DNA of 64,000 bases, taken from positions 3,996,037 through 4,060,036 of the forward strand of contig NZ_BDUD01000001.1 of NCBI RefSeq assembly GCF_003113895.1, in the 5' to 3' direction. The DNA is from Nostoc commune NIES-4072 (GTDB lineage: Bacteria; Cyanobacteriota; Cyanobacteriia; Cyanobacteriales; Nostocaceae). Of this stretch, positions 26,930-54,398 are shown in pieces (within the stretch, counting starts at the first letter, position 1; each line of letters starts with the position of its first letter). The position numbers were made by a program, and so were the translations under genes. The notes beneath the pieces are model-generated. The model made no database searches, was not told the DNA's origin, and saw nothing but the letters and a program-made list of their open reading frames with translations.

Positions 26930-29161
26930 TCAAATGACTATAGTGCCATTATTAACTGCCTCAGTCAAAGCTGCATTAAAAGAACCTTCAGACTGAGAGT
27001 TAAATATGCTGCCAAGACCAGAAACAATCTGTCCATAGTTAAATGCACTGCTACTACTGTTTCTCTGAGCAGAATTAGTACTAATTCCTTGAGTAGGGTT
27101 AAGACCCTCAGCAGGGTTAATCAGGTTATCGCCTTGAGGCAGCCTTTCGCTAGTTACTAAATCATTAGTGATATCAATGGTGGTAATTGGACTAGGATCG
27201 GCAATACTAATGACATCATTTGAACCACCGACAAATTTTTGCAGTTTTCCTTTGTTAATGTCCAATTCCGCCAACCAGCCGTCCACAGCTGAGGTATTAA
27301 CGCCACCACCGTTTCCTAATAAGCCATCAGTAGCTCCAGTCACGTAAAGCTTACCATTTCCGGCAGTAGTAACACCTATAGGGTAGTCAAGATTTTTTTT
27401 GCTTCCAAATTGTTGAATCCACTTGTTGTTGCCATCAGTATCGAATCTTGCCACCCAGGCATTATAAGATTCGTCTTTTTGGCCTTTTCCTAACTTGCCG
27501 TTAGATTCTCCGATGATAAAGATGTTGTCATTTTCATCGATCTGCATGTCGGATAAGAACATGCCATCATCATCTGGAGAACCAAACTGTTTAGCCCACA
27601 CTTGAGAGCCATCTGGGGTAAGTTTACTAATCCAAATATCACGACCCCCGATTCCTTTTTTTCCGACCTTTGTGCCAATATCCCCTGTAGTCCATCCTGT
27701 AACGTAAATATTGCCTTTGCTGTCAGTATCAACACCCCAAGCAAAATCAAGTCCCTGATTTATACTTCCAAGCTGTTGAACCCACTGTATCTCCCCTGCG
27801 GTGTTCACCTTTGACACCCAAGCATCGTACTTCAAAAGTTGCCGTGATGGGTCTGACTCTCTGACTAAGCCCTGAGTCCAACCTACAGCTATGCTGTTGC
27901 CATTATTATCAACGGCAAGGTCATAACATTCATCAAAAAAGGGAGTTATATCAAAAGGAAAGGTCGCTGAAGGATCTTTAATCAAGGTAGTCCACTGCTG
28001 GTTGCCATTGTTGTCAAACTTAGACACCCAGGAATTATCCTGAACGGCAAAATTGAAAATGTCTGTTCTGTCATTGTTATTAATTTCTATTCCTGATACG
28101 TAGACATTGCCTGATGGATCTAGATCTAGGCCAAAGGCTCCACTAGTAAAACCACCAGCACTAAACTGCCTACCCCAAACCTGATTGCCATTGGTGTCAT
28201 ATTTCGCCACCCAAACATCAGCTTCTGTTTGCTTGGTTCCAAACAAGTTACTCGACGTGCCGCCTGCCATGTAGGAGTTACCATCTTTATCTGTAACCAT
28301 CGCAAAGTTAGACTCATCACCAGAAGAGCCAAACTGCCTACCCCAAACCTGGTTGCCATTGCTGTCATATTTGGCTATCCAAGCATCTCCAAAACCCTGA
28401 TTTGTTCCAAACAATGGCCCGGTAGTAGTTCCTGATATATAAACATTGCCAGCAGCATCTGTACCCGTAGCAAGACTCAGATCGTTTCCGGTAGTTCCTA
28501 ATTGCTGAATCTTCTTGTTGAATGTTGGTTTTTTTGGTGGTTTTTCACCGACAAATCGGAAATTATTTGACTTCAAATCTAAGTTGACTTCCGGTTTTGC
28601 AACTACAAAAGTTACAAGGTCAGGTACTCCCTGTTGCAGTGAAAATATGGCTTCTCCAGAAAGAGGTCGTGCGACTCCTGCAATCTGTAATCCATCAATT
28701 TTTACGATTCGATAGTCTTTAGGTTTACCATTTAGCTGGATGACATCATTATTTACACCGAAATCATAAATGACAGCATACTCGTTCAAACCAAGGAAGT
28801 TTGTAGTCAGTAGGGTATCTGGGTTAGAGGTAGTATAGTAAGGCTGATATGTATCACCTAGAACAAATCTGTCTGCCCCTACAGATGGGATATTTCTGTC
28901 TAAGATGAGAAATGGATTACCACCTTGTTGAGCATTCTGAATATTCAGAATAATTTCATACTCTTCTGGAGAGTTGTCAAATATATCGCCGAACAAATAA
29001 TCTACATTTGTTGCTTGAGTCGCGCTTGCAATCGGATTGTCAGGATAAATGGTATCGTTTCCGGCACGACCGAAAAGGGCTTCAGGAGCATTTGTACCTC
29101 CTCCAATAACTAGATCGGCGGCAGGTGTCAATAATGAAATTGCTAATTGTTCATCAGCCAT
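26930..29161 (-). CDS. CylK/BrtB-like alkyl-chloride-using beta-propeller enzyme (copy 1)
   Basis: A 743-residue protein. The N-terminal ~215 residues contain an RTX-like calcium motif (GRAGNDTIYPDNP) and a conserved block (GADRFVLGD, FLGLNEYAVIYDFG). A seven-bladed-propeller-like part (~216-620) follows, built from repeats such as DVWVAKYDTNGNQVWGRQF and GNVYVSG, and then a low-complexity tail. This is the layout of CylK from cylindrocyclophane biosynthesis, which alkylates a resorcinol with a secondary alkyl chloride, and of BrtB, which esterifies carboxylates with alkyl chlorides. A CylC-like halogenase in the same gene set (50448-51845) strongly supports this role. The acceptor nucleophile is unknown. 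Start ATG has AAAGGA upstream. The sequence is closely similar to the next copy, including about 80 bp of leader. Confidence 0.82.
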   Translation of the reverse strand: MADEQLAISLLTPAADLVIGGGTNAPEALFGRAGNDTIYPDNPIASATQATNVDYLFGDIFDNSPEEYEIILNIQNAQQGGNPFLILDRNIPSVGADRFVLGDTYQPYYTTSNPDTLLTTNFLGLNEYAVIYDFGVNNDVIQLNGKPKDYRIVKIDGLQIAGVARPLSGEAIFSLQQGVPDLVTFVVAKPEVNLDLKSNNFRFVGEKPPKKPTFNKKIQQLGTTGNDLSLATGTDAAGNVYISGTTTGPLFGTNQGFGDAWIAKYDSNGNQVWGRQFGSSGDESNFAMVTDKDGNSYMAGGTSSNLFGTKQTEADVWVAKYDTNGNQVWGRQFSAGGFTSGAFGLDLDPSGNVYVSGIEINNNDRTDIFNFAVQDNSWVSKFDNNGNQQWTTLIKDPSATFPFDITPFFDECYDLAVDNNGNSIAVGWTQGLVRESDPSRQLLKYDAWVSKVNTAGEIQWVQQLGSINQGLDFAWGVDTDSKGNIYVTGWTTGDIGTKVGKKGIGGRDIWISKLTPDGSQVWAKQFGSPDDDGMFLSDMQIDENDNIFIIGESNGKLGKGQKDESYNAWVARFDTDGNNKWIQQFGSKKNLDYPIGVTTAGNGKLYVTGATDGLLGNGGGVNTSAVDGWLAELDINKGKLQKFVGGSNDVISIADPSPITTIDITNDLVTSERLPQGDNLINPAEGLNPTQGISTNSAQRNSSSSAFNYGQIVSGLGSIFNSQSEGSFNAALTEAVNNGTIVI

Positions 29162-29844
29162 TGTCTTTAAATCCTTTATTTGAGAAACAATTTAGATTTT
29201 TTCTAGACTCAGTTTCGGACTTGTGACTAATTCCCGTTAGTTGCTATCGAGAGTGCAAGCGCATCTCAAGTACAATAATCCTTTAATAGCAAGGGTTCGG
29301 GCGTTTCATGATTTAGGATATTGTTTCATCACTTTCCTTATCCAGCAAGTGTTTCAGTTTTACGTGCGTTTGCCCTGCTGGTGTTGATGCTCTGGTGGTT
29401 ATATTTATTTATCTCCAAAGAATAATATCTAATAGTTAGGCCAAATAGTAAAGTATTTTTTTTTCGTAAAGGATTTATTTTTGCAAGCTCCTTATTTGGA
29501 CTTTGCAGAAAAAAAAGTTGTTCGCATATAATTTACGTAAACAACTCGAATGATTAATTTTCTTTATAGGTTTATGTCTATTCTATCAAATTTGCTGACC
29601 CTAATAGTCAAAAACTTCTGGAGAGAAAATAATATAAAAAACTATATTTGATACTGACATTACTTCTTGTTAGACTTGAGAAAAAAATTGTTAGTTCTTG
29701 TATTAATTACGCTTCAATGCTTACCTTGAATCTTTTTTAACAGTGAACAGTAAACAGTTATCAGTGATCTATTTATCCCTGGGTTTAAGTCCCCCACCTC
29801 CAGGTGGAATGCGTTGGTGGCGGGTCTAAATCCCCCACCATACG

Positions 29845-30108: not shown

Positions 30109-30125
30109 GTAATGGTTTAAATCAT

Positions 30126-30260: not shown

Positions 30261-30266
30261 ATCATT

Positions 30267-32783
30267 TCAAATCACTAGACTCCCATTATTAACTGCCTGA
30301 GTCAAACTTGAAGAAAAAGGACTCCCATTATTAACTACCTGAGTCAAACTTGAAGAAGAAGCAGGTTGCAACTCAGAGTTAAATATGCTGTCAAGACTAG
30401 AAACGAACTGTCCATAATTGAATGTACTACTGGTAGAAGGAGTAGTGATTCCCTGACCAAAGTTAAGATTGATCCCTTCAGCAGGGTTAATCCGGTTATC
30501 GCCTTGAGGCAGCTTTTCGCTAGTTACAAGACTATTAGTGATATCAATGGTACGAATGGGAGCAGGAGCGGCAATACTGAAGACATCAGTTGAACCAGTG
30601 AGGACATCAGTTGAACCAGTGAGGACATCAGTTGAACCAGTGAGGACATCAGTTGAACCAGTGAGGACATCAGTTGAACCACTGGGGACATCAGTTGAAC
30701 CTGTGAGGACATCAGTTGAATCACTGGGGACATCGGTTGAACTAGTGAGGACATCAGTTGAACCACTGGGGACATCAGTTGAACCTGTGAGGACATCAGT
30801 TGAACCAGTGAGGACATCAGTTGAAAGGCTGAGGCCGTTAATTGATCTGCCGATAAATTTTTGCAGGCTTCCACTGTTGGCATCAAGTTGAGCCAACCAA
30901 CCGTCCACAGCTGAGCTAGTAACGCCAGTAGGGTTCGTTAATGAGCTATCCGTAAATCCAGTCACGTAAAGCCTACCAGTGCCGTTAGTAGTAACACCTG
31001 TAGGGTAGTCAAGATTATTTTGTCTTCCAAATTGTTGAACCCAGTTGTTGTTGCCATTAGTGTCGAACTTCGCCACCCAGGCATTATAAGATGGGTCTTT
31101 TGTGCCATTTCCCAACACGCCGTTAGTATGTCCGATGATAAAGATGTTGTCATTTTGATCGATCTGCATATCCGATAGGTACATGCCATCATCATCTGGA
31201 GAACCAAACTGTTTAGCCCACACTTGAGTGCCATTTGGGGTAAGTTTAGTAATCCAAATATCACGACCCCCGATTCCGGTTTGTCCGGTGCTTGTGCCAA
31301 TATCCCCTGTAGTCCATCCTGTAACGTAAATATTGCCCAAGCTATCAGTGTCAACACCCCAAGCAAAATCAAGTCCCTGATTTATACTTCCAAGCTGTTG
31401 CACCCACTGTACCTGTCCTGCTGTGTTCACCTTTGACACCCAGGCATCGTACTTCAAAAGTTGTCGTGATGGGTCTGACTCTCTGACTAAGCCTTGAGTC
31501 CAGCCTACAGCTATGCTATTGCCATTATTATCAACGGCAAGGTCATAAGATTCGTCAAAGAAGGGAGTTATGTCAAAAGGGAAAGTCGCCGCAGGATCTT
31601 TAATCAGGGTAGTCCACTGCTGGTTGCCATTGCTGTCAAACTTAGACACCCAGGAATTATCCTGAACGGCAAAGTTGAAAATATCTGTTCTATCATTGTT
31701 GTTAATTTCTATTCCTGATACGTAGACATTGCCTGATGGATCTAGATCGAGGCCAAAGGCTCCGCTCGAAAAACCACCAGCACTAAACTGCCTACCCCAA
31801 ACACGATTACCATTGGTATCATATTTTGCCACCCAAACATCAGTTTCTGTTTGCTTGGTTCCAAACAAGTTACCCGATGTACCACCCGCTAGGTAGGTGT
31901 TACCATTTTTGTCTGTGACGCTCGCAAAGTTAGACTCATCACCAGAGGAGCCAAACTGCCTACCCCAGACTAGGCTACCATTGGTGTTATATTTCTCTAC
32001 CCAAGCATCTCCCAAACCTTGATTGCGTCCAAACAATGTCCCGGTGGTAGTTCCTCCCAGATAAATATTGCCAGCAGAATCTGTATTCACAGCAAGACTG
32101 AGATCGTTACCAGTAGTCGCTAACTGATCAATCTTCCTGTACGCTGTTGGTTTTATTAGTGGTTTTTGACCGATAAACCGAAAATTATTCGAGATCAAAT
32201 TTAAATTGACTTCAGGCTTTGCAACCACAAAAGCTACGAGGTCAGGTGCTCCCTGTTGCAGTGAAAATATCGCTTGTCCAGAAAGAGGTTGTGCGATTCC
32301 TGCAACCTGTAATCCAGTAATTTTTACGATTCGATAGTCTTGCGGTCTACCATTTAGCTCGATGATATCATTATTAACACCGAAATCATAAATGACAGCA
32401 TACTCGTTCAAACCAAGGAAGTCTGTAGTTAGTAGGGTTGCTGGGTTAGAGGTAGTATAGTAGGGCTGAGTTCGATCACCGAGAACAAATCTGTCTGCCC
32501 CTACAGATGGGATATTTCTGTTTAGAATGAGAAATGGATTTCCACCTTGTTGGGCATTCTGAATATTCAGAATAATCTCATACTCTTCTGGGGAGTTGTC
32601 AAATAGATCCCCGAACAAATAATCTACATTTGTTGCCTGAGTGGCGCTTGCAACCGGATTGTCAGGATAAATGGTATCGTTTCCAGCACGACCGAAAAGG
32701 GCTTCAGAATCAGTTGTACCCGATGCGAGAACTAGATCGCTGGCAGGTGTCAATAATGAGATTCCTAATTGGTTATTGGCCAT
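30267..32783 (-). CDS. CylK/BrtB-like alkyl-chloride-using beta-propeller enzyme (copy 2, with tandem repeats)
   Basis: An 838-residue paralogue of the downstream CylK-like protein with the same layout: RTX-like N-terminal block (GRAGNDTIYPDNP), beta-propeller repeats (DVWVAKYDTNGNRVWGRQF, GNVYVSG) and an NNG-rich C-terminus. It differs by twelve STDV motifs in a 7-residue periodicity after the propeller and by a 14-residue duplication at the C-terminus. CylK-type enzymes couple a nucleophile to a secondary alkyl chloride made by a CylC halogenase. Two adjacent copies could mean two alkylations, two acceptors, or a homologous pair. ATG 32783 has AAGGGA upstream. The MFS gene is 447 bp upstream, so this gene may have its own promoter. 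Confidence 0.82.
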   Translation of the reverse strand: MANNQLGISLLTPASDLVLASGTTDSEALFGRAGNDTIYPDNPVASATQATNVDYLFGDLFDNSPEEYEIILNIQNAQQGGNPFLILNRNIPSVGADRFVLGDRTQPYYTTSNPATLLTTDFLGLNEYAVIYDFGVNNDIIELNGRPQDYRIVKITGLQVAGIAQPLSGQAIFSLQQGAPDLVAFVVAKPEVNLNLISNNFRFIGQKPLIKPTAYRKIDQLATTGNDLSLAVNTDSAGNIYLGGTTTGTLFGRNQGLGDAWVEKYNTNGSLVWGRQFGSSGDESNFASVTDKNGNTYLAGGTSGNLFGTKQTETDVWVAKYDTNGNRVWGRQFSAGGFSSGAFGLDLDPSGNVYVSGIEINNNDRTDIFNFAVQDNSWVSKFDSNGNQQWTTLIKDPAATFPFDITPFFDESYDLAVDNNGNSIAVGWTQGLVRESDPSRQLLKYDAWVSKVNTAGQVQWVQQLGSINQGLDFAWGVDTDSLGNIYVTGWTTGDIGTSTGQTGIGGRDIWITKLTPNGTQVWAKQFGSPDDDGMYLSDMQIDQNDNIFIIGHTNGVLGNGTKDPSYNAWVAKFDTNGNNNWVQQFGRQNNLDYPTGVTTNGTGRLYVTGFTDSSLTNPTGVTSSAVDGWLAQLDANSGSLQKFIGRSINGLSLSTDVLTGSTDVLTGSTDVPSGSTDVLTSSTDVPSDSTDVLTGSTDVPSGSTDVLTGSTDVLTGSTDVLTGSTDVLTGSTDVFSIAAPAPIRTIDITNSLVTSEKLPQGDNRINPAEGINLNFGQGITTPSTSSTFNYGQFVSSLDSIFNSELQPASSSSLTQVVNNGSPFSSSLTQAVNNGSLVI
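30279..30362. repeat. 42-bp duplication at the 3' end of CylK-like copy 2
   Basis: Two tandem copies of a 42-base unit begin at 30279 and 30321. They encode the repeated C-terminal element SSSLTQVVNNGS / SSSLTQAVNNGS. Copy 1 of the enzyme has only one such end (NNGTIVI). Confidence 0.8.
30580..30826. repeat. 21-bp tandem repeat inside CylK-like copy 2
   Basis: About eleven units of a 21-base repeat (core AGGACATCAGTTGAACC on the + strand) encode the 7-residue unit STDVLTG or variants (STDVPSG, STDVLTS, STDVPSD) on the - strand. The units stay in frame. All three frames of the + strand are also open here, which creates spurious open frames. Copy 1 has a single equivalent position and no array. 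Confidence 0.9.
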
Positions 32784-33230: not shown

Positions 33231-34781
33231 CTACTTCTTGTGTTTAATATAAACAGGAGAATTCTTAGGAACTTGGTTAAAATTTGGCTGAATAAACACC
33301 AGAATCAAAAATGCTCCACCTAGCAAGGCAATACTTGCTAGAAGCACAGTTGCATGTAGACCCGATACAAATGCATTGCTAATCGCCTGATGCATAGCTT
33401 GGGTTGAAATGTTAACTGGCAGGTCACTGGGTACTTTTACTCCACTATGCAAAACATCAGCGATGAGGCGATCTTGGAGGTTTGAGGGTAGGCCCCAAGT
33501 AGAGAGCGATCGCGCTAAATGTGAGGCTAGCAGTTGTGTAAGAATTGTTCCTTGTATGGCAACTCCTAAAATAGCGCCGATACGATTACTAGTGTTGATT
33601 ACTGCTGAGGCAATTCCCACTTTTGTAGAGGGTACAGAATTCAGAGCTACTGCCGCTAAGGGCGCGAGTGTCAAGCCGCTACCAAACCCCGAAAGAATCA
33701 GGCTCCACAAAATCGCTCCATACTCTGTATCGGCACTAATTCGGATCAACGAAAATGTAGCTATGCTTGCTACGATAAGTCCTGTCGCGATCGCAAAGCG
33801 CCACCCTAAGCGAGCAGCAAACCACCCAGAACATATAGATGCAATTACAAAAGCCCCATTCATCGGCAGGAAGCGCAAGCCAGCTGCCGTTGCCGAGTAG
33901 CCCTGCACTTGTTGGAAGAACAGGCTGAAGATAAAAAGTAAGCTGACAACACAGAAGAATACCAAAATTTCAACGACATTGACAACAGTAAATGTCGAAT
34001 TCTGAAACAAGGTTAATGGCACCATTGGGTGGCTACTGTGGGACTCAACAAATAAAAATGCTATAAAGCTAAGTCCAGCAACTATCAGCAGCAAGACAAT
34101 AAGGGGTGATTGCCATAGCCCAGTATTCCCTTGCGTAAGTGTGTATGTAAGTGAAGCCAGAAAGATTACACTGAGCAATAAACCAGGCACATCGAGACGT
34201 TGCTTGTTAGGATCTTTACTTTCCCTAACAACACGCGAAGTCAACTGAAAAGCGATCGCTCCCAATGGTAAGTTGACAAAGAACACACTTTGCCATCCCA
34301 AAGTATCTACTAGCAGTCCACCTAACGCAGGGCCAGCAACCAGGGCGAGTCCTGACACGGCAGCCCAAATACCAAGGGCTTTTGATTTTTCATTCGGTTC
34401 AGGAAACGTATCAGCAATGATCGAGAGAGAACCAGTCACTAGGGCAGCAGCCCCAATTCCTTGAAGGGTTCGTCCAGTAATCAAGATACTCAAATTGGGA
34501 GCTAGACCGCAAATTAAAGAAGCGATCGTGAAGATGACTAGCCCTGTAAGGAAGACTCGCTTACGTCCATAAATGTCTCCTAATGTTCCGCTTGGCAGCA
34601 TCATACCAGCAGCAGACAAAGTGTAAGCGTTGAGAATCCACTGTAATCCCGACACGCCAGAGTTTAGACTTATCTGAATTTTGGGAAGCGCCACATTCAT
34701 CACAGTGTCATCAATATTGGCCATGAAGAGGGCGAAACACATTGCCGCTAGGGTAACTGTTTTAATACGATCTCGATTCAT
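33231..34781 (-). CDS. DHA2-type MFS exporter, 14 transmembrane helices
   Basis: A 516-residue EmrB/QacA-family transporter. The start MNRDRIKTVTLAAMCFALFMANIDDTVMNVALPKI has the D-D-T motif in helix 1 typical of drug/proton antiporter family 2. Motif A is GTLGDIYGRKR, and the TGSLSIIADTFP and AGPALGGLLVD segments follow in the expected order. The last part has the SGLHATVLLASIALLGGAFL helix. The gene starts 8 bp after the stop of the upstream glycosyltransferase, so the two are co-transcribed. It probably exports the glycosylated product. Substrate is not predictable. Confidence 0.9.
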   Translation of the reverse strand: MNRDRIKTVTLAAMCFALFMANIDDTVMNVALPKIQISLNSGVSGLQWILNAYTLSAAGMMLPSGTLGDIYGRKRVFLTGLVIFTIASLICGLAPNLSILITGRTLQGIGAAALVTGSLSIIADTFPEPNEKSKALGIWAAVSGLALVAGPALGGLLVDTLGWQSVFFVNLPLGAIAFQLTSRVVRESKDPNKQRLDVPGLLLSVIFLASLTYTLTQGNTGLWQSPLIVLLLIVAGLSFIAFLFVESHSSHPMVPLTLFQNSTFTVVNVVEILVFFCVVSLLFIFSLFFQQVQGYSATAAGLRFLPMNGAFVIASICSGWFAARLGWRFAIATGLIVASIATFSLIRISADTEYGAILWSLILSGFGSGLTLAPLAAVALNSVPSTKVGIASAVINTSNRIGAILGVAIQGTILTQLLASHLARSLSTWGLPSNLQDRLIADVLHSGVKVPSDLPVNISTQAMHQAISNAFVSGLHATVLLASIALLGGAFLILVFIQPNFNQVPKNSPVYIKHKK

Positions 34782-34789
34782 CGCTGTTA

Positions 34790-36022
34790 CTACCTCTGCT
34801 GGAGTGGTTCTGCCACTGTTGTTTTAGTTGTTTTATAATTATTAGCAAGAATCTTCTGTAAGATATCGGGAATTTCAAACACGGCTCTATTGTTTACCGC
34901 AGCGACATTTGCACGGTAGCGGGCGAAATTTTCCGGCTCAAGAAACTGCTCAACTGCTCGGTCAATATCTCGAAAACTGCGGATAACCAGACCTACTTGC
35001 TGGTGTTGAATCCAGTCAGTGTTGTATTGTTCCTGCGGCATTGTTGCAGCACTTCGTTCCACAATTACTGGTAGCTTCATGACTAACGCTTCACTAATAC
35101 TACCAGGGCCTGGTTTACCAATCATAAAATCACTAAGATGCATATAGTAAGGAATGTCTTTTGTAAAGGTGGTGACAAACCTTTTCTGGAGACTTTGGCT
35201 CTCACGTAAAGCTAAAGCTAGTTCTTCATTGCGTCCGCAAATAAAGATGAGTTGTAGTTTTTGGTGAAAAGACTCTAGACGCTTGGCAATTTCTAGCATT
35301 GCTTTGGAGCCATTACCCCCGAATAATACAAGTCCAGTCAGACAGTCTGGATCTAAACCCAAGCGTTGCCTTTCTTGGGCGCGATCGCTGACAATTGGTT
35401 CATAAAAGCGAGGGTTAATCACCATTCCCGAAGTTTTGACGATCAGATCCTCATTTACTCCTAGAGAACGAGCTTGTTCCACTGCTTTTTGGGTGCCACA
35501 AACAACATAACTTCCCGTTTCTGGTTCTATCCAATAGGCCGACGGAAAATCAGCAAAATCTATCAGAACTGTCACTAAAGGTGTGCCTGGTTTTACTTTC
35601 TGTAAACTTTCCCAGATCATTTTATTAAACAACGGCACTACAGAAACTACTAGGTCTGGCTGTTGTTCGCGCCACTGTTCCTCAAATATCCTCACACCAG
35701 CATCGTAATTTAGTTTGATCAGTAGTTTATTGAAGGGCATTGTCAGATGGTGAATCCATGTCCAACCGCTTTGCATAATCTGGTTGAGAACTTGATCTCC
35801 ACTAGTTCCGAATAACTTGTAGATATCCAGTGTCTTTTGTCCTTCAGCTAACCGCTTTGCTAATATGTCCACATCGGTAATACTAGTTTGACAGGGGAGT
35901 TGTTGCTCAATTATTGAAGATATCGCATTAGAAGTAGCGATATGCCCTCCACCACTATTTCCGGTGACAACATTGATCAAAAACTTTTTTTTGGGATATG
36001 AGGATGATTGCATTGTTTCCAT
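34790..36022 (-). CDS. MGDG-synthase/GT28-like glycosyltransferase (copy 1)
   Basis: A 410-residue glycosyltransferase with the N-terminal domain of monogalactosyldiacylglycerol synthases (VVTGNSGGGHIATSNAI, FNKMIWESLQKVKPGTPLVTVLIDF) and a GT28-type C-terminal half (LFGGNGSKAMLEIAKRLE, FICGRNEEL, MIGKPGPGSISEA). The GKPGPGS segment normally binds the UDP-sugar phosphates. It is related to the protein at 38321-39496. Near a UDP-galactopyranose mutase gene and PKS genes it probably attaches a hexose to the polyketide or fatty-acyl product rather than making membrane MGDG; this is inference. The donor could be UDP-galactofuranose or another UDP-sugar. Confidence 0.85.
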   Translation of the reverse strand: METMQSSSYPKKKFLINVVTGNSGGGHIATSNAISSIIEQQLPCQTSITDVDILAKRLAEGQKTLDIYKLFGTSGDQVLNQIMQSGWTWIHHLTMPFNKLLIKLNYDAGVRIFEEQWREQQPDLVVSVVPLFNKMIWESLQKVKPGTPLVTVLIDFADFPSAYWIEPETGSYVVCGTQKAVEQARSLGVNEDLIVKTSGMVINPRFYEPIVSDRAQERQRLGLDPDCLTGLVLFGGNGSKAMLEIAKRLESFHQKLQLIFICGRNEELALALRESQSLQKRFVTTFTKDIPYYMHLSDFMIGKPGPGSISEALVMKLPVIVERSAATMPQEQYNTDWIQHQQVGLVIRSFRDIDRAVEQFLEPENFARYRANVAAVNNRAVFEIPDILQKILANNYKTTKTTVAEPLQQR

Positions 36023-45497: not shown

Positions 45498-48400
45498 TCA
45501 GTACCTCATGCTATTTAATTTACCAAGCAGCAGTGCTTCGGCTTCGCTGTCTGATAAATCGTCTAAATATGACTCAGTTACAACTTGCTCCTTATGGTTG
45601 GTTTCTTGTGATTCGACAGCAGATTCATCAGAAATTAAAGATGCAATCGCATCTTTTAGTAGATAATCAACAAGCGCCTCAATTGTGGGATAGTCAAAAA
45701 CTAAAGTTGAAGGTAGAGAACAACTTAGAGTGCTTTCCAAACGGTTCTTTAACTCCACTGCCATCAGAGAATCCATGCCGAGATCAAGAAAACCTTGTTG
45801 CGGCTCTAATTCCGATGCATCAATCCCTAAAAGTTTAACAAGTTCAGTTTGGATGTGAGCAATTAAAAGAGGTTGCCGCTCGTTTACAGGGGTTGCTTCT
45901 AACTGTTGTAAAAATTTTGTTCGTTGCAACGATGGTTTTTTATCTATGGCAATGAAAGATTCCAAAAATGGTGAAACCACACCTTCAGGAAATTGTTCGC
46001 AGAACTTAGACCAGTTGACTGGCAATACTCCTACCTGGCTTCTATCCTGTCCTAGCAAATTTCCTAATATCTGCAATCCCTGTTCTAATGGTATAGACTC
46101 CATTCCTTGAGCTGCTAATCTCGCTTGATCGCGGTTTCCCAGACTTGTAGCCATGCCAGCATCTTTCCAAAGTCCCCAGTTGATGCTTAATCCTGGTAGT
46201 CCTGATGCTCGGCGATAATCGGTTAACGCATCCATGAAAGCATTGGCGGCTGCATAATTTCCTTGACCTGGCGAACCTAATAACGCCGCAGCCGAGGAAA
46301 ATGTAACAAAGAAATCCAGTTGTAACTGCTGGCTCAATGTGTGCAGAATCCAAGTTCCTCTAACCTTTGCTGCCATAACTTGCTCGAAGGACTTCCACTC
46401 CTGCTGTCGAAGGATGCCATCGTGGAGCATACCAGCAGCGTGGATAATTCCTCCCAGAGGTGGCATCGAGGTTTTAATTTCCTCGAATACTCTGACCATA
46501 TCGCTCCAGTGGGCGACATCAGCAGTGGCGATCGCTACCTTTGCTCCCAGATTTTCCATCTGAACGATCGCTTGGAGTACTTCAGCTGATGCCTGTTTGC
46601 GCCCAGTCAGCATTAAATGCCGCGCCCCTTGCTCTACCATCCACTGTGCTACTTTTAGACCTAATGCTCCCAACCCTCCAGTAACCAAATATGTGCTATC
46701 TGATTGCAGAGATATTGAACGAGCCTCTGATACTTCGCTGCGGATGAGACGAGCCACATAACGCCGTCCTTCTCGGAAGGCGATTTGGTCTTCCCCTTGA
46801 GAATCCCGAATCTCTGCTAACAGATTTACTGCTTCATCTGTGGGAGCATCGGCAGCCAAATCTAGTAGTCCTCCCCACAACTTGGGATGCTCTAAAGCAA
46901 TAACTTTACCCAATCCCCACAAAGAAGCCTGGGCTGGTGCTTGCAATGAGGATACTGCTGGTACTGCTCCTCTAGTTACTAACCACAAACGGGGCGAAGC
47001 GAGGCGTGAGGCAAGAGCTTGCACTAGATGCAAGGTACTGGCACAACCAAGAACCTGAATCTTTTCTATTAAAGGGACGGTTAATTCTGAAGTCAATCCT
47101 GCTTCTAAACTCCACAGGTGAACAACTCCTTTTAACGGTAAGTTGTTAGTTCCCACTACCTCTTGCACAAGCTGCTCAAAATCGGCTGGGTTCGATGGGT
47201 TAACACTCCAAGTTCCAGGCTGTTTAACTTCATAGCTGTCCCCAGGATAGACCAGAAAACAATTTTCACCCTGCTTTTGTAAAAGATGGGCTAGAGCTTG
47301 TCCAACACCCGATCTGTCAGCTAAAATCAGCCAACTACCAGGTTCTTGAGCGCTGATTTGTGTCAACTGACGTGGCTTAGGCTGCCAACTAACTTCGTAG
47401 AGCCAATCTTTGTAGGATGCTGCTGTTAGTTGTTGTTGATGTTGCTTGGCTAATATGTCTAGCAGCTTAGGGAGTACTTTGATTTCTTCTTCTGAGAATT
47501 GTGTTGCAGTTTGTAAGTATTTGGCTAGTTCTTGAGTCTCCCCTTGATGTAAAAGATTGAAGATTTGAGTCTGAATCCGATCTGGGGATAAAGACTCTGT
47601 TTTTGAATCCCCATTCTTAACTTGTTCAAACCAATAGCGCTGGCGTTGAAATGGGTAATTTGGTAAAACAACTCGACGACGGGCATAGTCTCGATCAAAG
47701 CCATTCCAATCTACGATCGCACCCTTAATGTACAATGTCGCCAAACTGTCAAGGATTTGTTGCCAATCTTCACGCCCAGTCCGCAGGCTAGGCAGCCAAG
47801 TTCCCTCTCCCTCCGGCAAACAATAACGACCCATTCCCATGAGTATAGGCTTGGGGCCAATCTCGACAAATATCTTGTAGCCCCTCTGATACAGCGACTC
47901 CATACTGTCTGCAAATCTTACTGGCTGCCGCACATGATTGCACCAATACTCAGGGGTAGCCATTTCATCTGTAATTGGTTGACCAGTGAGATTGGAAATT
48001 AGACTAATTTTAGGTGAAGAGTAGGTAATATTTTTAGCTACTTGCTCAAACTCACCTAGCATTGGTTCCATTAAGGGAGAGTGGAAAGCATGAGAAACTT
48101 GTAACTTTTTCGTCGTGATTCCTTGTGTCCGCAGAATGTTGGTGACTATTTCTATAACGTCGCGATCGCCAGAAATTACTATATTCTTAGGGCCATTAAT
48201 CGCAGCGATGGCTACTTGGGCATAAGGTTGAATAATTGAGGTTACTAAAGCTTCCGACGCAATTACCGCCACCATCTCACCATCTTGGGGCAATGCCTGC
48301 ATGAGACGAGCGCGTTCGGCAATTAACTTTAGACCATCTTCTAAACTAAATATCCCGGCAATACAAGCAGCTGCATATTCACCTACACTATGCCCCATCA

Positions 48401-50255
48401 CTGCATCTGGTTTGATCCCCCAGGATTCCCATAACTGAAATAGAGCATATTCCAGAGCAAACAAGGCTGGTTGAGTATAAGCAGTTTCATCTAAAGGCGA
48501 AGATTTGCCAGCTTCGGGATAAAGAATCTCTACTAAAGGCTGCTTAAGATATGGATGCAGAATTTGGGCGCATTTGTCAATAGCTTCCCTAAAAATCGGT
48601 TGGGTATCGTAGAGTTGACGGCCCATACCGACATACTGCGATCCCTGACCGGTGAATAAAAATGCTAGCTTCGGCAACTTCTTTTTCTTTAATTGCCCAC
48701 TCCTAAGACCGGAAGTATCTTCTCCAGCGCCAAAAGCACTCAATTGCTGACACATTTGGACAGCAGATTCACCAACAACAGCCAAGCGATGCTCAAAATG
48801 CGATCGCCCCGTATTTCCACTAAAGCAGACATCCGCCAACGATACTTCTGGATGAGACGCAAAGAAATCTTGATACTCTTGTGCTAGTTCCACTAGAGCT
48901 GGAGCAGTTTTCGCCGATAGGGTCAGAATATGCTGGGGTCGTTCTATAGAACCAGTATTCCCCAATCTAAAATTAGATGGTGATTCTTCTAAAATTATGT
49001 GACAATTGGTGCCACCGAAACTAAAAGCACTGACTCCTGCCAAGCGACTTTCAGAGGAAGACCAAGGCTGACGCTCAACTGGAATGGCAAAGGGTGTGCC
49101 TTCCAGAGAAATATAAGGATTAAGCTGCTTAAGATGCAGATGAGGCGCAATTTCCCGTTGCTGCATTTGTAAGACCACCTTGATCAGGCCAGCCATACCA
49201 GCAGCACCTTCTAAATGACCAATGTTGGTCTTGACTGAGCCAATCCAACAGGGTTGATCTGGGGAACGACCTTCCATCAATACAGCTTTGAGGGATTTGA
49301 CTTCAATGGGATCTCCTAAAGAAGTGCCAGTCCCGTGAGCTTCTACATAGCTAATCTGCGCTGGGGCGACTCCAGCCTGTTCTAAGGCTTGGCGAATAAC
49401 TGCTTGCTGGGAAGGCCCATTGGGAGCTGTCAGTCCATTACTTGTACCATCTTGGTTAATTGCCGAGCCTCTAATTAGCGCCAAAATGTTGTCTCCATCA
49501 CGCACGGCATCTTCTAGACGCTTAAGTACGACAACGCCGCAACCTTCTCCTCTGCTATAACCATCAGCACTAGCGTCAAAGGTCTTACAGCGACCGTCAG
49601 GAGCCATCATCTGAGCTTGGGAGCAAGAAATTGCAGGCTCTGGAGCTAACATTAAGTTAACTCCTCCAGCTAGGCAGAGATTGGACTCTCCGTTTCGTAA
49701 ACTCTGGCAAGCTAAATGAATTGCTACTAATGATGAAGAACAAGCTGTATCTATAGCTATACTGGGGCCACGCAGATTTAGCAAGTAGGATAGACGATTG
49801 GCGGCAATGCAAGGAGTAGTCCCCGTAGCACTATATGCACCGATTTGGGAAGAGTCTTTGTAGATCAGTTTGTGGTAGTCAGCGTTGGTAACACCGATGA
49901 ACACACCTGTTTGGCTACCAGCTAGAGTTTTTGGTACAAGTCCAGTATTTTCTAAAGCTTCCCAAGCTACTTCCAAGACTAATCTTTGCTGGGGGTCTAG
50001 ATGTTCTGCCTCGCGGGCAGAAATTCCAAAAAAGTTGGGATCAAACAAATCTACTTGATCTAAAAAACCGCCCGAACGGGAGTTCATTTTTCCTGGTGTC
50101 GCTGGCTTAGATTCATAAAAGGCGTTTATATCCCATCGTTCTGGTGGTACTTGTGCGATCGCATCTACTCCATCACGCAAGAGATGCCAAAACAACTCAG
50201 GATTTTTAGCTTTGGGAAAACGGCAACCAATGCCAACAATTGCTATGGCTTCCAT
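45498..50255 (-). CDS. Type I polyketide synthase, KS-AT-KR-ACP (PKS4)
   Basis: A 1585-residue modular PKS. ATG 50255 follows a TTG one codon earlier, and AAAGAGG lies upstream. The protein begins directly with the KS ([14 protein letters not shown]), without a docking coil, as PKS1 does. That fits chain entry from a free ACP. KS: Cys172; HGTGT and NIGHLE are intact. AT: Ser623 in GHSVGE and HAFHSPLM, which indicates malonyl-Co[11 protein letters not shown] and Tyr1334 in GNYAAAN are intact. ACP: Ser1496 in LGMDSL. The tail ([17 protein letters not shown]) resembles PKS docking tails and closely matches that of PKS1. Being next to FAAL, ACP and CylC-like genes, this is probably the first extension module for the chlorinated fatty acyl chain. 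Confidence 0.95.
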
Positions 50256-50447
50256 CAAAATATTATGCCTCTTTTTAACTAATTACTAATTCGTAGTTAA
50301 TAATTTAATTACGAATTGTGAATTAGGGATTTCCAAGAAATAAATTACCCAAATAAACCTAGACGCCGAGAACACAGAGAACACACAGGAATAAAGAAGA
50401 GAGAGTTTTTTGGATATTTTTTATTTGGAAGTCCCTTACGGATTGCT

Positions 50448-51845
50448 TTAAGTGTCTTGAGCTATAACCGATTTTTTGAACTCTTTAAAGACCGGAATAT
50501 TGTTTTGAATTGCTTTGTCAATTGAGGCTCCAGCAGCCATAATCCCCATGTTACGGTTGACAGACCACTGATAGTCTAGGCGATTAAATAATCTCCGCAT
50601 CAATTCCAAAAGACTTTGATGATATTTAAGCCCGGTTTGGAAACCTTCATGTTCTTGGCAGAAGCATTTTTCCATCCAATCAAGTGCTTCTTTTGTTTCC
50701 ATATCAAATAAAGGAGACTTTAAGAGCTTGTAGTAAAAGAGCATCAACATCTGGTCATCATAAACACAACGACCTGGTAATACTCCAGAAAGTCCGCTCA
50801 AAAGGTTGCGTTGGATTTGATAGACTATCGAACCAGAGATAAATTTCTCGTAAGCAGTTGGCTTGGGGAAATCCTTATACATATCTCTGGCAATGGTTTG
50901 AGAGATTGTTGTATGGAAAGCCTCGTCCAATAAGTGGTAATAAGAAACAGCTGTTGGAGCCGGAATATACTCGCCTTTTTGCTCTAACTCTCGGTAATAC
51001 CTGACATAAGGATATTCCTGATTCTTGAGAATCGCATTAGCCGTATAGCGCAAGGAATAGTATTGACACGCCATAAACGGCGACATACCCCAGTGAACAG
51101 TAAAAAACCGTAACCAGTGGCGGGGTGCGATTCGTCCTGCTAGTCCATCTGCTGGTGCAGGAATCGGCTCACCTTTTTCTTCTAAATTTCTCAAATACTG
51201 AGAGTAATACTGTTTTTTATCGCTCAACATTGTCTTAGCGATCGCGCTTAAGGTATTATCTCGCTGTATTGAAAAGGGAGAACTTCCTTGATTAGAGGTG
51301 AAATACTCTCGCACAGGTTGAGGAATCAAAAGATTAAGCCAACTACTGTTGTCTTTTGCTGTTTTGCCATAAAGGGAATTACCCAATATGGTTTTACCAA
51401 CAATCGCCATTTTCGATTTGTAGCCGATCTTTTGAAAGGTACGAATGTGGTAGCTTTCCTGCTCGGTTTCAAAGTCCAGTTCATCACAAAGCGTTTCATA
51501 ACCACCAACGGCACGAAAAACACCAGACGTGACCATGTTGTAAATACTTGTACTGGCTTCGCTAACAGCAGTATGGTTATAATTTCCAACCCAATAAAGA
51601 TGGTTAAGGGCTAGTTTTTGGGTTTCAGAAGCAGCATCATAAAGAGGAGTCCCATACAGAAGCGAAAGGTCAGGTTTACTCCAATAATAATTGCTGTTTT
51701 TGGCGTAATTAAATTCGTTACCCAGTTCTTTGAGTTTCTCAGTATAATCTGAGTCTTTATTATTTTGGTAAGTTTTTTCAATCCGATGGAAGTGCGTTGG
51801 TTCCTGCGCTTCTAACGGTTCGAGAGTCTTATTTAGAGTTACCAT
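50448..51845 (-). CDS. CylC-like dimetal-carboxylate halogenase
   Basis: A 465-residue protein. It has two ferritin-like ExxH metal motifs, E130-S-Y-H133 (in TEQESYH) and E308-A-F-H311 (in LLDEAFH), with a further Glu at position 96 (SEAST) in an earlier helix. This fits the AurF/CylC dimetal-carboxylate group. CylC chlorinates an unactivated mid-chain carbon of an ACP-bound fatty acid in cylindrocyclophane biosynthesis. Homologues occur in bartoloside, columbamide and microginin gene clusters, always near FAAL and ACP genes. The order here, FAAL-ACP-halogenase-PKS, is the same. ATG 51845 has AGGAG 7 bases upstream. The site of chlorination cannot be predicted. The CylK-like genes downstream suggest that the chlorine is later displaced. 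Confidence 0.88.
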   Translation of the reverse strand: MVTLNKTLEPLEAQEPTHFHRIEKTYQNNKDSDYTEKLKELGNEFNYAKNSNYYWSKPDLSLLYGTPLYDAASETQKLALNHLYWVGNYNHTAVSEASTSIYNMVTSGVFRAVGGYETLCDELDFETEQESYHIRTFQKIGYKSKMAIVGKTILGNSLYGKTAKDNSSWLNLLIPQPVREYFTSNQGSSPFSIQRDNTLSAIAKTMLSDKKQYYSQYLRNLEEKGEPIPAPADGLAGRIAPRHWLRFFTVHWGMSPFMACQYYSLRYTANAILKNQEYPYVRYYRELEQKGEYIPAPTAVSYYHLLDEAFHTTISQTIARDMYKDFPKPTAYEKFISGSIVYQIQRNLLSGLSGVLPGRCVYDDQMLMLFYYKLLKSPLFDMETKEALDWMEKCFCQEHEGFQTGLKYHQSLLELMRRLFNRLDYQWSVNRNMGIMAAGASIDKAIQNNIPVFKEFKKSVIAQDT

Positions 51846-51885: not shown

Positions 51886-52191
51886 TTATTTTTCAACTTT
51901 TAACTCTGAGACTAAATGCTTAACTAGAGCCTCAACAGTTGGGTAATCATATAGTAGGGTTGGATCGAGTTCACATCCCAACCAGTCTTCTAAGTCACCT
52001 GTCAAACCGACTGCTGCTGAAGAGTCTAATCCATAGCGGTCAAAAGGTATTGTGACTTCGATTTCGTCTGAATCAACTTCCAGCAAGTCAGCTAGATATA
52101 AAACTATCCACGCTTGAATTTCTGCTGCTGTTGGGATCTGCTTCAGTGCAATTGTAGATGTGGTATTCAATTCCAGATTTTGCATTGTCAT
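51886..52191 (-). CDS. Stand-alone acyl carrier protein of the FAAL/halogenase set
   Basis: A 101-residue carrier protein with Ser57 in the RYGLDSSAAV motif as the phosphopantetheine site. The LEDWLGCELDPTLLYDYPTVEALVKHL part is typical of ACPs that pair with fatty acyl-AMP ligases. It lies between the FAAL and CylC-like genes, 40 bp before the latter, and AGGAG precedes its ATG. The expected role is to carry the fatty acyl chain during chlorination and pass it to PKS4. It corresponds in position to CylB of the cylindrocyclophane pathway. Confidence 0.92.
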   Translation of the reverse strand: MTMQNLELNTTSTIALKQIPTAAEIQAWIVLYLADLLEVDSDEIEVTIPFDRYGLDSSAAVGLTGDLEDWLGCELDPTLLYDYPTVEALVKHLVSELKVEK

Positions 52192-52541: not shown

Positions 52542-54398
52542 TTATAGCTGGTTAGTAGGTGTTAACTGCCTTAAAACAGAATCAACCTCTGCTTCTAGAT
52601 CCTTAAACTTAGCTTTGTTCTGAGGATTCTCACTCCAATCCTCCATGACATCCAAGGTGCCAGCAAGAAATGCAGTTCTACAAGCTTGACGGCGAATTTT
52701 GCCACTAGAGGTTTTGGGAATACTTCCAGTCTTGATGAGTACCGTAGCGAATATATCTAGTCCATGCTGTGCAATCACTGCTTGTCTTACATTTCCCAGA
52801 ATTTCTTGAACGTTTAACTTACGTAAGTAACTACGCTCTACCTCCTGAACAATAACTAGTCGCTCAGAACCCTTGAAATCAACGGAAAATGCGGCTCCTG
52901 AAGCAGGTTTCAGGGCTGGATGGCTCTTTTCAACAGTCAGTTCAATATCTTGGGGATAATGATTTTGCCCTCTGATGATAATTACATCTTTGAGTCTCCC
53001 TGTGATAAACAACTCCCCATCTTGCAAAAATCCTAAATCTCCAGTGCGAAAAAACGGGATTGAGGTTTCAGCATCGCTTATATCTGTATCTGCTAAGTAG
53101 GCACGGAAAGCCTTTTCTGTCTCTTCAGGTTGATTCCAATAACCTTGAGCAACACTTGGGCCTGCTACCCAGATTTCCCCTACTTGCTCAGGTGCACATA
53201 TCGTTAAAGATTGGGGATCAACAATGATCACCTTCTGATCAGAAGGACTTTGCCCACAACCTACTATTGTCTGGATATCTCCCTGACTCTTATGCTGCTT
53301 AACAATTCGGTTTTGCTCTAATGCCGCTTTATCTACATTGCAAGTGATTGGTAAAGCTGTTTTCTCACCTCCGCTTACTATCAGAGTGGTTTCTGCCATA
53401 CCGTAGCAGGGATAAAATGCTTCTTTGCGAAAGCCACAAGGTGCAAAAGTTGAAGCAAACTGTTCTAAAGTCTCAGCACGGACAGGTTCAGCACCGGTAA
53501 AAGCAACCTCCCAACTGCTGAGATCGAGAGTTGCTAACTGTTCGGGTGTCACCTTGCGAATGCAAAGATCATAAGCAAAATTTGGCCCGCCACTAGTTGT
53601 AGCTTTGTAGTGAGATATTGCTTGTAACCAACGAATTGGTTTTTGAAGAAACTCTACTGGAGACATCAGAATGCAAGGAACTCCTAAATACAGGGGTTGC
53701 AAGACATTTCCAATGAGTCCCATATCATGGAAGACAGGTAACCAACCAACAACGATAGTTTTGTTTGTATGTCCGAAAGCTTTCTCGATCATCCGCTCGT
53801 TATGCAGCAGATTCCCATGACTGATCATCACCCCCTTTGGCGTCCCTGTAGAGCCAGATGTGTATTGGAGGAAAGCTAAGGTATCACCGGTCAATTCCTG
53901 CGGTTGCCATGCTTGCGCTAGATCGTTACTCAACTCATCGGTAGCTAGCCAATGCAATCCCGAAATTTCTAAATCCTCTTGATTAGAACTAGTTTGGAGG
54001 TTATCTAAAATAGATTTAGAAGTCAGTACAATTTTGGCTTGGGCATCTGCGGCTATTGCCTGCAACCTAGACAATTTTTGATTTCGTCTGGGTGGATATG
54101 CAGGAACAGCAATAACGCCGGCATATAAACATCCAAAGAAAGCAGCGATAAAATCTAGACCCGGTTGATATAGCAGCAAAGCACGTTCACCGCCAAGATT
54201 TAGAGCCTGGAGACTAGCTGCGATCGCTTGTGCTTGCACATGTAACTCTTTATAAGTCAACGATGCTGCTTCTGTCTCTATACTTTGTAAAAAAGTATAA
54301 GCTTTTTGTTCAGACTGGTTTTTTGCTCTATAAATCAGCAATTCAACTAACGTTGAAAACTGATGCGGACTTATCACGCTGTTGGAATAAACACTCAT
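52542..54398 (-). CDS. Fatty acyl-AMP ligase (FAAL)
   Basis: A 618-residue adenylating enzyme. It has YTSGSTGTPKGVMISHGNL, WLPVFHDMGLIGNVLQPLY, the YGMAETTL motif, FFRTGDLGFL and KDVIIIRGQNHYPQDIE. The HDMGLIG and GQNHYPQDIE segments and the ~620-residue length are typical of FAALs, as against acyl-CoA ligases. It forms acyl-AMP from a free fatty acid and loads the neighbouring ACP. It is the first gene of the fourteen-gene - strand set and corresponds to CylA of cylindrocyclophane biosynthesis. Chain length is not predictable. The upstream region (54399 on) is long and AT-rich and should hold the main promoter. Confidence 0.93.
   Translation of the reverse strand: MSVYSNSVISPHQFSTLVELLIYRAKNQSEQKAYTFLQSIETEAASLTYKELHVQAQAIAASLQALNLGGERALLLYQPGLDFIAAFFGCLYAGVIAVPAYPPRRNQKLSRLQAIAADAQAKIVLTSKSILDNLQTSSNQEDLEISGLHWLATDELSNDLAQAWQPQELTGDTLAFLQYTSGSTGTPKGVMISHGNLLHNERMIEKAFGHTNKTIVVGWLPVFHDMGLIGNVLQPLYLGVPCILMSPVEFLQKPIRWLQAISHYKATTSGGPNFAYDLCIRKVTPEQLATLDLSSWEVAFTGAEPVRAETLEQFASTFAPCGFRKEAFYPCYGMAETTLIVSGGEKTALPITCNVDKAALEQNRIVKQHKSQGDIQTIVGCGQSPSDQKVIIVDPQSLTICAPEQVGEIWVAGPSVAQGYWNQPEETEKAFRAYLADTDISDAETSIPFFRTGDLGFLQDGELFITGRLKDVIIIRGQNHYPQDIELTVEKSHPALKPASGAAFSVDFKGSERLVIVQEVERSYLRKLNVQEILGNVRQAVIAQHGLDIFATVLIKTGSIPKTSSGKIRRQACRTAFLAGTLDVMEDWSENPQNKAKFKDLEAEVDSVLRQLTPTNQL

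What the first reader, a model, noticed from the sequence alone, without database searches (positions are those of the whole stretch)
26930..54398. Orphan FAAL-ACP-CylC...CylK gene set with glycosylation genes: a candidate new alkyl-chloride-using pathway
Fourteen same-strand genes join a FAAL, an ACP, a CylC-like halogenase and two CylK-like enzymes to PKS modules, UDP-galactopyranose mutase, two glycosyltransferases, a methyltransferase and an exporter. In cylindrocyclophane biosynthesis CylC installs, and CylK removes, a chlorine while making a C-C bond to a resorcinol; BrtB makes C-O bonds. Here I see no type III PKS or resorcinol-making gene. The nucleophile should therefore be something else, such as a carboxylate, a sugar hydroxyl, or the PKS-NRPS product encoded on the other strand. 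I do not recognise the whole set as a described cluster.
Basis: partly seen in the sequence, partly recalled or inferred. Interest (0 to 1): 0.9.

Follow-up and report, generated by a model that had tools for sequence, protein, structure and literature searches.

The report
Nostochloroside-like chlorinated glycolipid gene cluster
A Nostoc genome carries a variant of the recently described gene set that makes chlorine-bearing sugar lipids and stitches them together by displacing the chlorine; it has a different sugar module and includes a probable aldolase-type enzyme that had no assigned role.

Summary
The 14 genes are real and their predicted functions hold up. They form one conserved 27.5-kb unit, found in seven other Nostoc/Desmonostoc genomes with most genes 79-99% identical; the plus-strand PKS-NRPS does not travel with it. 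The set is not wholly orphan: its closest described relative is ngl of Nostoc punctiforme (nostochlorosides; PMC10849952), where the CylK homologue NglO joins chlorinated glycolipids by ether bonds. The window shares with an ngl-like proxy FAAL, ACP, CylC, a KR-bearing PKS, an inactive-KS/ACP unit, a docking-domain protein, SDR and methyltransferase. It differs in sugar genes (UDP-galactopyranose mutase, two GT28-type transferases), an exporter, one PKS module fewer, and two CylK homologues of a separate clade without RTX. Both keep the alkyl-chloride residues Arg and Tyr, have Glu for CylK Asp440 (as NglO), and lack Glu374. I predict hydroxyl nucleophiles and ether-linked glycolipids. New here: the 621-aa TubC_N protein is predicted to fuse a docking domain to a class II aldolase-like domain (metal-site motif in all 120 listed homologues), a candidate for the unexplained odd-carbon diol end; profile comparison does not support it. 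Verdict: new variant of a known kind.

The parts
52542..54398 (-). fatty acyl-AMP ligase (FAAL): activates the starter fatty acid
   Evidence: Pfam AMP-binding and DIP2-like domain; NCBIfam FAAL models match but below their curated cut-offs; 68% identical to the FAAL of the ngl-like proxy cluster
51886..52191 (-). stand-alone acyl carrier protein
   Evidence: Pfam PP-binding, E 3.5e-17
50448..51845 (-). CylC-type dimetal-carboxylate halogenase
   Evidence: weak AurF Pfam hit below cut-off; QExxH and HxxDExxH motifs; 826 homologues at E<=0.001; 54% identical to the proxy's halogenase
45498..50258 (-). PKS1: KS-AT-KR-ACP, active-site motifs intact
   Evidence: Pfam; motifs
42518..45493 (-). PKS2: KS*-AT*-ACP with KS His lost (QGTGT), AT Ser lost (GNDVG) and an acidic docking tail ASESETFEI
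   Evidence: Pfam; motifs; same His-to-Gln change in the proxy's KS* (QGTST); a tail of this kind in 27 of 27 regions examined, window included
40502..42367 (-). TubC_N beta-hairpin docking domain (residues 1-55), middle region without a clear fold match, and class II aldolase-like domain (residues 327-621; PSYD, H519xH521, H579)
39567..40463 (-). short-chain dehydrogenase/reductase
   Evidence: Pfam adh_short, E 7.6e-56; 65% to the proxy
38321..39496 (-). glycosyltransferase 1 (GT28/MGDG-synthase-like)
37159..38286 (-). UDP-galactopyranose mutase
   Evidence: Pfam GLF; TIGR00031 above cut-off; a second, 50% identical copy lies elsewhere in the genome
36084..37082 (-). SAM methyltransferase
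   Evidence: Pfam Methyltransf_23; 62% to the proxy's methyltransferase
34790..36022 (-). glycosyltransferase 2 (GT28/MGDG-synthase-like)
33231..34781 (-). DHA2-family MFS exporter
   Evidence: Pfam MFS_1; TIGR00711 above cut-off
30267..32783 (-). CylK homologue K2 (838 aa), Arg/Tyr/Glu catalytic set kept, repeat-rich tail
   Evidence: PDB CylK, E 8.9e-96; residues
26930..29161 (-). CylK homologue K1 (743 aa), R32, E411, Y445
   Evidence: PDB CylK, E 4.3e-99; residues

Best explanation
This is a variant of the nostochloroside (ngl) type of pathway. FAAL and ACP load a long fatty acid; the CylC-type enzyme chlorinates it mid-chain; PKS1 adds two carbons and leaves a hydroxyl. The inactive KS*-AT*-ACP protein holds the chain and presents it, through its acidic tail, to the docking domain of the 621-aa protein, whose metal-dependent class II aldolase-like domain makes or breaks a C-C bond at the chain end and so releases it. 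The SDR reduces the product to a polyol end; the two GT28 transferases add hexose (galactofuranose made by the mutase is the simplest guess) and the methyltransferase caps a hydroxyl. Finally K1 and K2 bind the alkyl chloride with Arg and Tyr, deprotonate a lipid hydroxyl of a second molecule with Glu, and join the two by an ether, giving oligomers; the MFS protein exports monomer or product. Shown here by sequence: gene identities, conservation, catalytic residues, the dead PKS sites, the conserved tail and docking domain. Inferred: every reaction and its order, the aldolase chemistry, the sugar, the ether. If the logic matches ngl with one fully reducing module fewer, the tail would be C19 instead of C21, with monomer C26H51ClO8 ([M+H]+ 527.3345) for one methylhexose or C32H61ClO13 (689.3873) for two hexoses and one methyl.
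Against: N. punctiforme ngl itself was not recognised in the collections searched, so all ngl comparisons go through a proxy. K1 is as close to CylK (41%) as to the NglO-like proxy (40%) in identity. K1 and K2 lack the RTX domain. The aldolase assignment has no sequence-profile support: hhalign probability 0.3% against 18 class II aldolase-family proteins, no Pfam domain over cut-off or NCBIfam match beyond TubC_N, and the Foldseek alignment has a low query TM-score (0.21) and rmsd 10.4. Of those 18 control proteins only 10 have the HG and 4 the PSxE motif. The published ether position rests on MS and modelling, not on NMR of the oligomer. A mutase does not explain the gulose of nostochlorosides, and some relatives lack it: of 14 regions 9 have it whole, 1 truncated, 4 not. 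I have no metabolite data for this strain.
Confidence: 0.6

Rival explanations
1. K1 and K2 work like BrtB: they join the alkyl chloride to free fatty acids or another carboxylate, giving esters of the glycolipid.
For: BrtB also has Arg and Tyr equivalents plus a Glu at the Asp440 position (PMC8916777 passages); the genome lacks a type III PKS by PF00195.
Against: BrtB has Arg at position 374; K1 and K2 have Gly there, as do both NglO-like rows. Only 1 of 27 clade rows has Arg. The tree puts them with NglO-like proteins, but BrtB itself was not in the tree.
Confidence: 0.2
2. The chlorinated glycolipid is the end product and K1/K2 are dispensable or act on an unrelated substrate; the cluster is an ordinary chlorolipid glycoside cluster.
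For: In N. punctiforme the monomers are readily detected, the dimer only in some cultures, and nglO deletion raised the monomers; the number of CylK copies varies.
Against: K1 or its orthologue is present with Arg, Glu and Tyr in all seven syntenic genomes, and K2-type copies persist in N. flagelliforme and CHAB 5836 with the residues intact.
Confidence: 0.12
3. The PKS-NRPS on the plus strand supplies the nucleophile, so the two clusters make one hybrid product.
For: They lie side by side in the window, their 3' ends facing each other near 26.7-26.9 kb.
Against: The plus-strand genes p6-p10 are absent from all seven syntenic regions, which extend 9.7 to 30 kb beyond K1, while the minus-strand set is kept. 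The plus-strand locus resembles in make-up a separately described hybrid PUFA-PKS-NRPS clade.
Confidence: 0.03
4. The 621-aa protein is not an aldolase-like catalyst but a structural or regulatory partner of the ACP with a degenerate or unrelated fold.
For: No detectable sequence-profile similarity to class II aldolases; where those enzymes have PSxE this family has PSYD.
Against: The His triad and the PSYD/PSFD motif are kept in the 120 listed homologues, unlikely for a dead domain.
Confidence: 0.2

Closest known systems
ngl (pks3), nostochlorosides, Nostoc punctiforme ATCC 29133 (PMC10849952)
   Same: FAAL, CylC homologue, PKS with an inactive KS, glycosyltransferase, CylK homologue, no resorcinol synthase; via the proxy also ACP, docking-aldolase protein, SDR and methyltransferase
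   Different: Window has UDP-galactopyranose mutase, two GT28 transferases and an MFS exporter in place of the proxy's GT4 transferase (the published ngl has a sugar epimerase); no DH-ER module; AT remnant on the KS* protein; two CylK homologues without RTX and with Arg-Tyr spacing 413 against 376
cyl, cylindrocyclophanes (CylC/CylK; PMC8916777, passages and section 9)
   Same: CylC-type halogenase and CylK-type propeller enzyme with Arg105 and Tyr473 equivalents
   Different: No type III PKS; Glu374 lost; Asp440 replaced by Glu; glycosylation genes present
brt, bartolosides (BrtB; PMC7081238, search listing only)
   Same: Glycosylated chlorolipids (recalled) and a CylK-family O-alkylating enzyme with Glu base
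   Different: No dialkylresorcinol genes among the 14; Gly, not Arg, at 374
Type I PKS CylC clusters (chlorosphaerolactylate, columbamide, microginin, puwainaphycin-like; PMC8406957, abstract and section 19)
   Same: FAAL-ACP-CylC-PKS front end
   Different: CylK homologues, sugar genes and docking-aldolase back end
PfaD-bearing, PUFA-synthase-type loci L152-L166, perhaps the compact hgl-like islands of PMC11804610 (passages); that equation is my inference
   Same: Same docking-tail ACP plus docking-aldolase protein, often with the SDR
   Different: Chain made by PUFA-type synthase with PfaD instead of FAAL and modular PKS; of the ten such loci without CylC nearby that I fetched, nine had PfaD

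Membership tests
ngl (nostochloroside) cluster | FAAL, CylC and CylK homologues without a CylI resorcinol synthase | tested here: met
ngl (nostochloroside) cluster | PKS with an inactivated ketosynthase (KS*) | tested here: met
   HGTGT to QGTGT in 42518-45493; published KS*, whose mutated residue the text read does not name; proxy has QGTST
ngl (nostochloroside) cluster | DH and ER domains in the PKS line | tested here: not met
   no DH or ER domain in either PKS protein; present in the proxy
ngl (nostochloroside) cluster | CylK homologue with a C-terminal RTX domain (NglO) | tested here: not met
   no PF00353 in K1 or K2; present in the proxy
ngl (nostochloroside) cluster | sugar epimerase (NglK) | tested here: inconclusive
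ngl (nostochloroside) cluster | product: chlorinated glycolipid and its ether oligomers | not testable with these tools
   needs metabolomics
CylK family of alkyl-chloride-using enzymes | N-terminal domain plus propeller homologous to CylK | tested here: met
   (query residues 31-648 and 11-645)
CylK family of alkyl-chloride-using enzymes | Arg105 and Tyr473 equivalents | tested here: met
   R32 and Y445 in K1, equivalents in K2
CylK family of alkyl-chloride-using enzymes | carboxylate base at Asp440 (Asp or Glu) | tested here: met
   Glu in both
CylK proper (resorcinol-alkylating) | Glu374 and a partner type III PKS | tested here: not met
   Gly at 374; no PF00195 match in the genome
BrtB proper (carboxylate O-alkylation) | Arg at position 374 | tested here: not met
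   Gly in K1 and K2; the BrtB residue is from PMC8916777
CylC-type dimetal halogenase | QExxH and HxxDExxH motifs | tested here: met
   QESYH and HLLDEAFH; motif definition
Class II aldolase superfamily (621-aa protein, residues 327-621) | class II aldolase fold | tested here: met
Class II aldolase superfamily (621-aa protein, residues 327-621) | HxH ... HG metal-site His triad | tested here: met
   120 of 120 listed homologues, 56-60 residues from second His to HG His; 61-73 in the 10 of 18 PF00596 control proteins that have HG. That the three His meet in space was not checked
Class II aldolase superfamily (621-aa protein, residues 327-621) | Glu of the P-S-x-E motif upstream of HxH | tested here: inconclusive
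   PSYD in 119, PSFD in 1 of 120: Asp instead of Glu; only 4 of 18 control proteins have PSxE
Class II aldolase superfamily (621-aa protein, residues 327-621) | sequence-profile similarity | tested here: not met
   hhalign probability 0.3%; hence 'class II aldolase-like', not filed as a member

The most novel reading that the evidence does not exclude
The docking-domain protein is a new kind of assembly-line terminator. An acyl chain on an ACP with a conserved acidic tail is handed to a metal-dependent class II aldolase-like enzyme that forms (or cleaves) a C-C bond with a small hydroxy-ketone donor, so that an SDR can leave a hydroxylated, odd-carbon chain end ready for glycosylation. The same ACP-aldolase pair ends both modular PKS chlorolipid clusters and PUFA-type islands across cyanobacteria, and would explain the puzzling C21 vicinal-diol tail of the nostochlorosides (C16 + 2 + 2 + 1). 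In the window it is combined with mutase-dependent sugars and two ether-forming CylK homologues.
Probability: 0.35. Interest if true: 0.75.

Novelty: new variant of a known kind. Interest (0 to 1): 0.55.

Why it matters
Enzymes that swap an alkyl chloride for a C-O or C-C bond are rare; PMC10849952 compares three activities in this family (CylK, BrtB, NglO). The window clade of 27 sequences shares a Glu/Tyr set and lacks the resorcinol residue, a defined group to test for hydroxyl chemistry with other sugars. The docking-aldolase protein gives a question left open in the nostochloroside paper, how an odd C21 tail with a vicinal diol arises, a concrete gene and a testable active site. It also links these clusters to uncharacterised PUFA-type islands of Nostocales.

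Tried and rejected
N. punctiforme ngl itself: looked for in genome contigs (the best 80 of 215 matches, 75 loci), the protein collection (the best 120 of 2109 and of 826 hits, representatives of 90% clusters) and the 53 held genomes of the genus (unnamed). I did not recognise it in any; capped lists mean it may lie below. Desmonostoc geniculatum (G008/L042) served as proxy, chosen because its CylK homologue has the published NglO spacings.

Sequence support for the aldolase: hhalign of residues 320-621 against 18 PF00596 proteins from held cyanobacteria gave probability 0.3% and an alignment that sets the HxH stretch against their HG stretch; Pfam over 31 members gave only TubC_N in all; NCBIfam none; PDB sequences only docking domains with E under 0.01. 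Only 10 of the 18 controls have HG and 4 PSxE. The case rests on the predicted fold and the motif order. The model's coordinates could not be read, so the geometry of the His triad was not checked.

Print searches: class II aldolase + PKS + docking domain 0 papers; mutase + halogenase + Nostoc 0 papers; at least two of chlorinated glycolipid, cyanobacteri, galactofuranos 53 papers, 20 listed, only PMC10849952 of these judged relevant from the listing; at least two of NglO, CylK, halogenase since 2023: 3 papers. These cover open-licence PMC only, and supplements could not be read, so the ngl supplementary note on the tail was not seen.

RNA families: none at gathering score in the window. Plasmid search with the 621-aa protein: four records; one (92.9%) is UHCC 0926, another (59%, Gloeothece) was not followed.

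Tree caveats: rows other than K1, K2 and CylK were picked by the Arg motif [GA]RxG[NS]D, so Arg conservation among them is by construction; Glu and Tyr are not. Several loci gave two rows. BrtB was not available. The root is at the midpoint only.

Full report
What is there. The window lies at 3,996,037-4,060,036 of contig 1 of an 8.2 Mb genome of the genus group g1; the closest named relatives of its proteins are Nostoc. On the minus strand 14 ORFs run from 54,398 down to 26,930: FAAL, ACP, CylC-type halogenase, PKS1 (KS-AT-KR-ACP), PKS2 (KS-AT-ACP), a 621-aa TubC_N protein, SDR, GT28-type transferase, UDP-galactopyranose mutase, methyltransferase, a second GT28-type transferase, MFS exporter, and two CylK homologues. 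Both CylK homologues align with solved CylK along most of their length.

It is one unit. tblastn of every window gene against regions from 14 genomes found by their CylK homologue shows the whole set in seven of them (G050, G044, G053, G004, G045, G032, G038). Most genes are 79-99% identical; the methyltransferase falls to 59-69% in G044, G053, G045 and G032 and is nearly lost in G038, the mutase is truncated in G032, GT2 and MFS are 65% and 73% in G053, where the CylK homologue also has another place in the row. Plus-strand genes p6-p10 and the right-hand flank (57-64 kb) gave no match in any of the 14 regions. Beyond K1 the seven syntenic regions reach 28, 18, 30, 9.7, 19, 19 and 19 kb (in the order above), enough to see p6-p10, which end within 5.6 kb of K1 here; G001, G030, G083 and G068 reach only about 1-2 kb and are no test. 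In Nostoc sp. UHCC 0926 the unit sits on a 1,036,473-bp plasmid. The plus-strand genes (PfaD end, three PKS proteins, NRPS, MFS) look like the clade II hybrid PUFA-PKS-NRPS pathways of PMC13291983, listed there for N. commune, N. flagelliforme and N. sphaeroides among others (passages).

The described relative. PMC10849952 (abstract, start of the main text, sections 6, 7, 8, 10 and extended-data legends read) describes ngl of N. punctiforme: FAAL, CylC and CylK homologues, PKS with KS, KR, AT, DH, ER, ACP and an inactivated KS*, no CylI. Products are chlorinated 6-O-methylgulose glycolipids with a C21 tail, starting from palmitate. NglO oligomerises them in vitro, read by the authors as etherification from MS and modelling. 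NglO's key residues are R84, E428 and Y460. I did not recognise N. punctiforme in what is held (capped lists). One locus, Desmonostoc geniculatum (L042 = G008), has a CylK homologue with exactly those spacings (+344 Glu, +376 Tyr), an RTX tail, and a PKS with KS-AT-DH-ER-KR-ACP followed by a KS-ACP protein whose KS reads QGTST where HGTGT is usual. I use it as a proxy for ngl. Against it the window has FAAL 68%, ACP 57%, CylC 54%, PKS1 55%, TubC_N protein 68%, SDR 65%, MT 62%, CylK 41%; the mutase, both GT28 genes and the MFS have no match there, and the proxy has a GT4 transferase and a second methyltransferase instead.

The CylK homologues. In a 61-row maximum-likelihood tree K1 and K2 lie in a 27-row clade (100/100), next to the NglO-like pair L042/L043 (100/99), and a 100/100 branch separates these 29 rows from CylK and the rest. 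The 18 rows with the mutase gene in their neighbourhood, K1 and K2 counted among them, form one group relative to the GT4 rows. K2-type copies are shared with CHAB 5836 and N. flagelliforme, so the duplication is not recent to this strain. At CylK numbering the 27 rows have Arg105, Glu440 and Tyr473 throughout (Arg by choice of rows, except K1 and K2); position 374 is Ser 12, Gly 10, Ala 3, Arg 1, Pro 1. The six CylK-clade rows have Asp440 and Glu or Asp at 374. PMC8916777 (passages and section 9) assigns Arg105 and Tyr473 to the alkyl chloride, Asp440 and Glu374 to the resorcinol, and notes Glu and Arg at these two places in BrtB. So K1 and K2 keep the chloride side, have the NglO-type base, and lack both the resorcinol and the BrtB signature at 374. 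Identity alone does not decide: K1 is 41% to CylK and 40% to the proxy. The genome has no type III PKS by PF00195 (the same search rings in 5 of 14 control genomes). Six CylK homologues of the listed 120 are fused behind a stretch of 278-306 residues that matches the start of the window's MFS protein, which suggests membrane-bound action.

The PKS line. PKS1 has intact KS, AT, KR and ACP motifs. PKS2 has lost the KS active-site His (HGTGT to QGTGT) and the AT Ser (GHSxG to GNDVG), and no HAFH motif was found, in keeping with the KS* of ngl. Counting modules: ngl-like = 2 + 2 carbons, window = 2. The published labelling puts chlorination at C12 of the tail and C7 of palmitate, hence C1 of palmitate at C6; my inference is that C4-C5 come from PKS1 and C2-C3 from the reducing module, with C1 left over. 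For the window this predicts a C19 tail.

How it most likely works, and how sure. Family placement (ngl-like, hydroxyl-using CylK homologues) I hold at about 0.8; ether formation specifically about 0.55; the aldolase-like fold about 0.8 and its role as chain terminator about 0.35-0.4; galactofuranose about 0.4. The combined statement gets 0.6, read as 'right in its main lines'. Rivals are a BrtB-like ester (0.2), idle K1/K2 (0.12) and the hybrid with the plus-strand cluster (0.03).

Novelty. The front end and the idea of cryptic chlorination without resorcinol are in print (PMC10849952; PMC8916777 section 9 predicts diverse nucleophiles; PMC8406957 classes FAAL-ACP-CylC-PKS clusters, section 19). 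New here, as far as searches go (open-licence papers, no supplements), are the separate clade of RTX-free, often mutase-linked CylK homologues, the shortened PKS line with its mass prediction, and the docking-aldolase reading. Some clade members were probably among the 286 homologues of PMC8916777, which I could not check.

Noticed in passing
window 13-22538 (+): End of a PfaD gene (TIGR02814, below its cut-off because only the end lies in the window) followed by KS-AT-DH-MT-KR-ACP, KS-AT-KR-ACP, KS-AT-ACP-C, A-C and MFS genes: looks like the uncharacterised clade II PUFA-PKS-NRPS hybrids of PMC13291983.
   Followed up: partly
P0141, P0143, P0144, P0156, P0157, P0188: CylK homologues fused behind 278-306 residues matching the start of a DHA2 MFS transporter in six of the 120 listed homologues: perhaps a membrane-anchored alkylating enzyme.
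   Followed up: partly
   Followed up: no
L169-L170 (G044:C3, Nostoc indistinguendum): A second cluster in the same genome with near-identical FAAL (90%) and CylC (95%) but three PKS stretches and a distant CylK homologue (36%): front end perhaps exchanged between clusters.
   Followed up: no
G032:C131 (Nostoc favosum): The mutase gene of the otherwise intact cluster matches only residues 1-77.
   Followed up: no
window 29162-30266: The 1.1-kb gap upstream of K1 shares short stretches with the sequence upstream of K2 (65 bp at 89% and others): the leader region was probably duplicated with the gene.
   Followed up: partly
window 54399-57675: 3.3 kb upstream of FAAL without an ORF of 100 aa and without an Rfam match.
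   Followed up: no
window 58332-59045 and 59242-59712: By eye: a P-loop ATPase (GEKGGVGKS, ParA-like) and a piece resembling a cytochrome P450; no Pfam match for either.
   Followed up: no
PMC10849952, discussion: The epimerase NglK is given as Npun_F3566, outside the stated cluster range R3355-F3373; probably a misprint.
   Followed up: no
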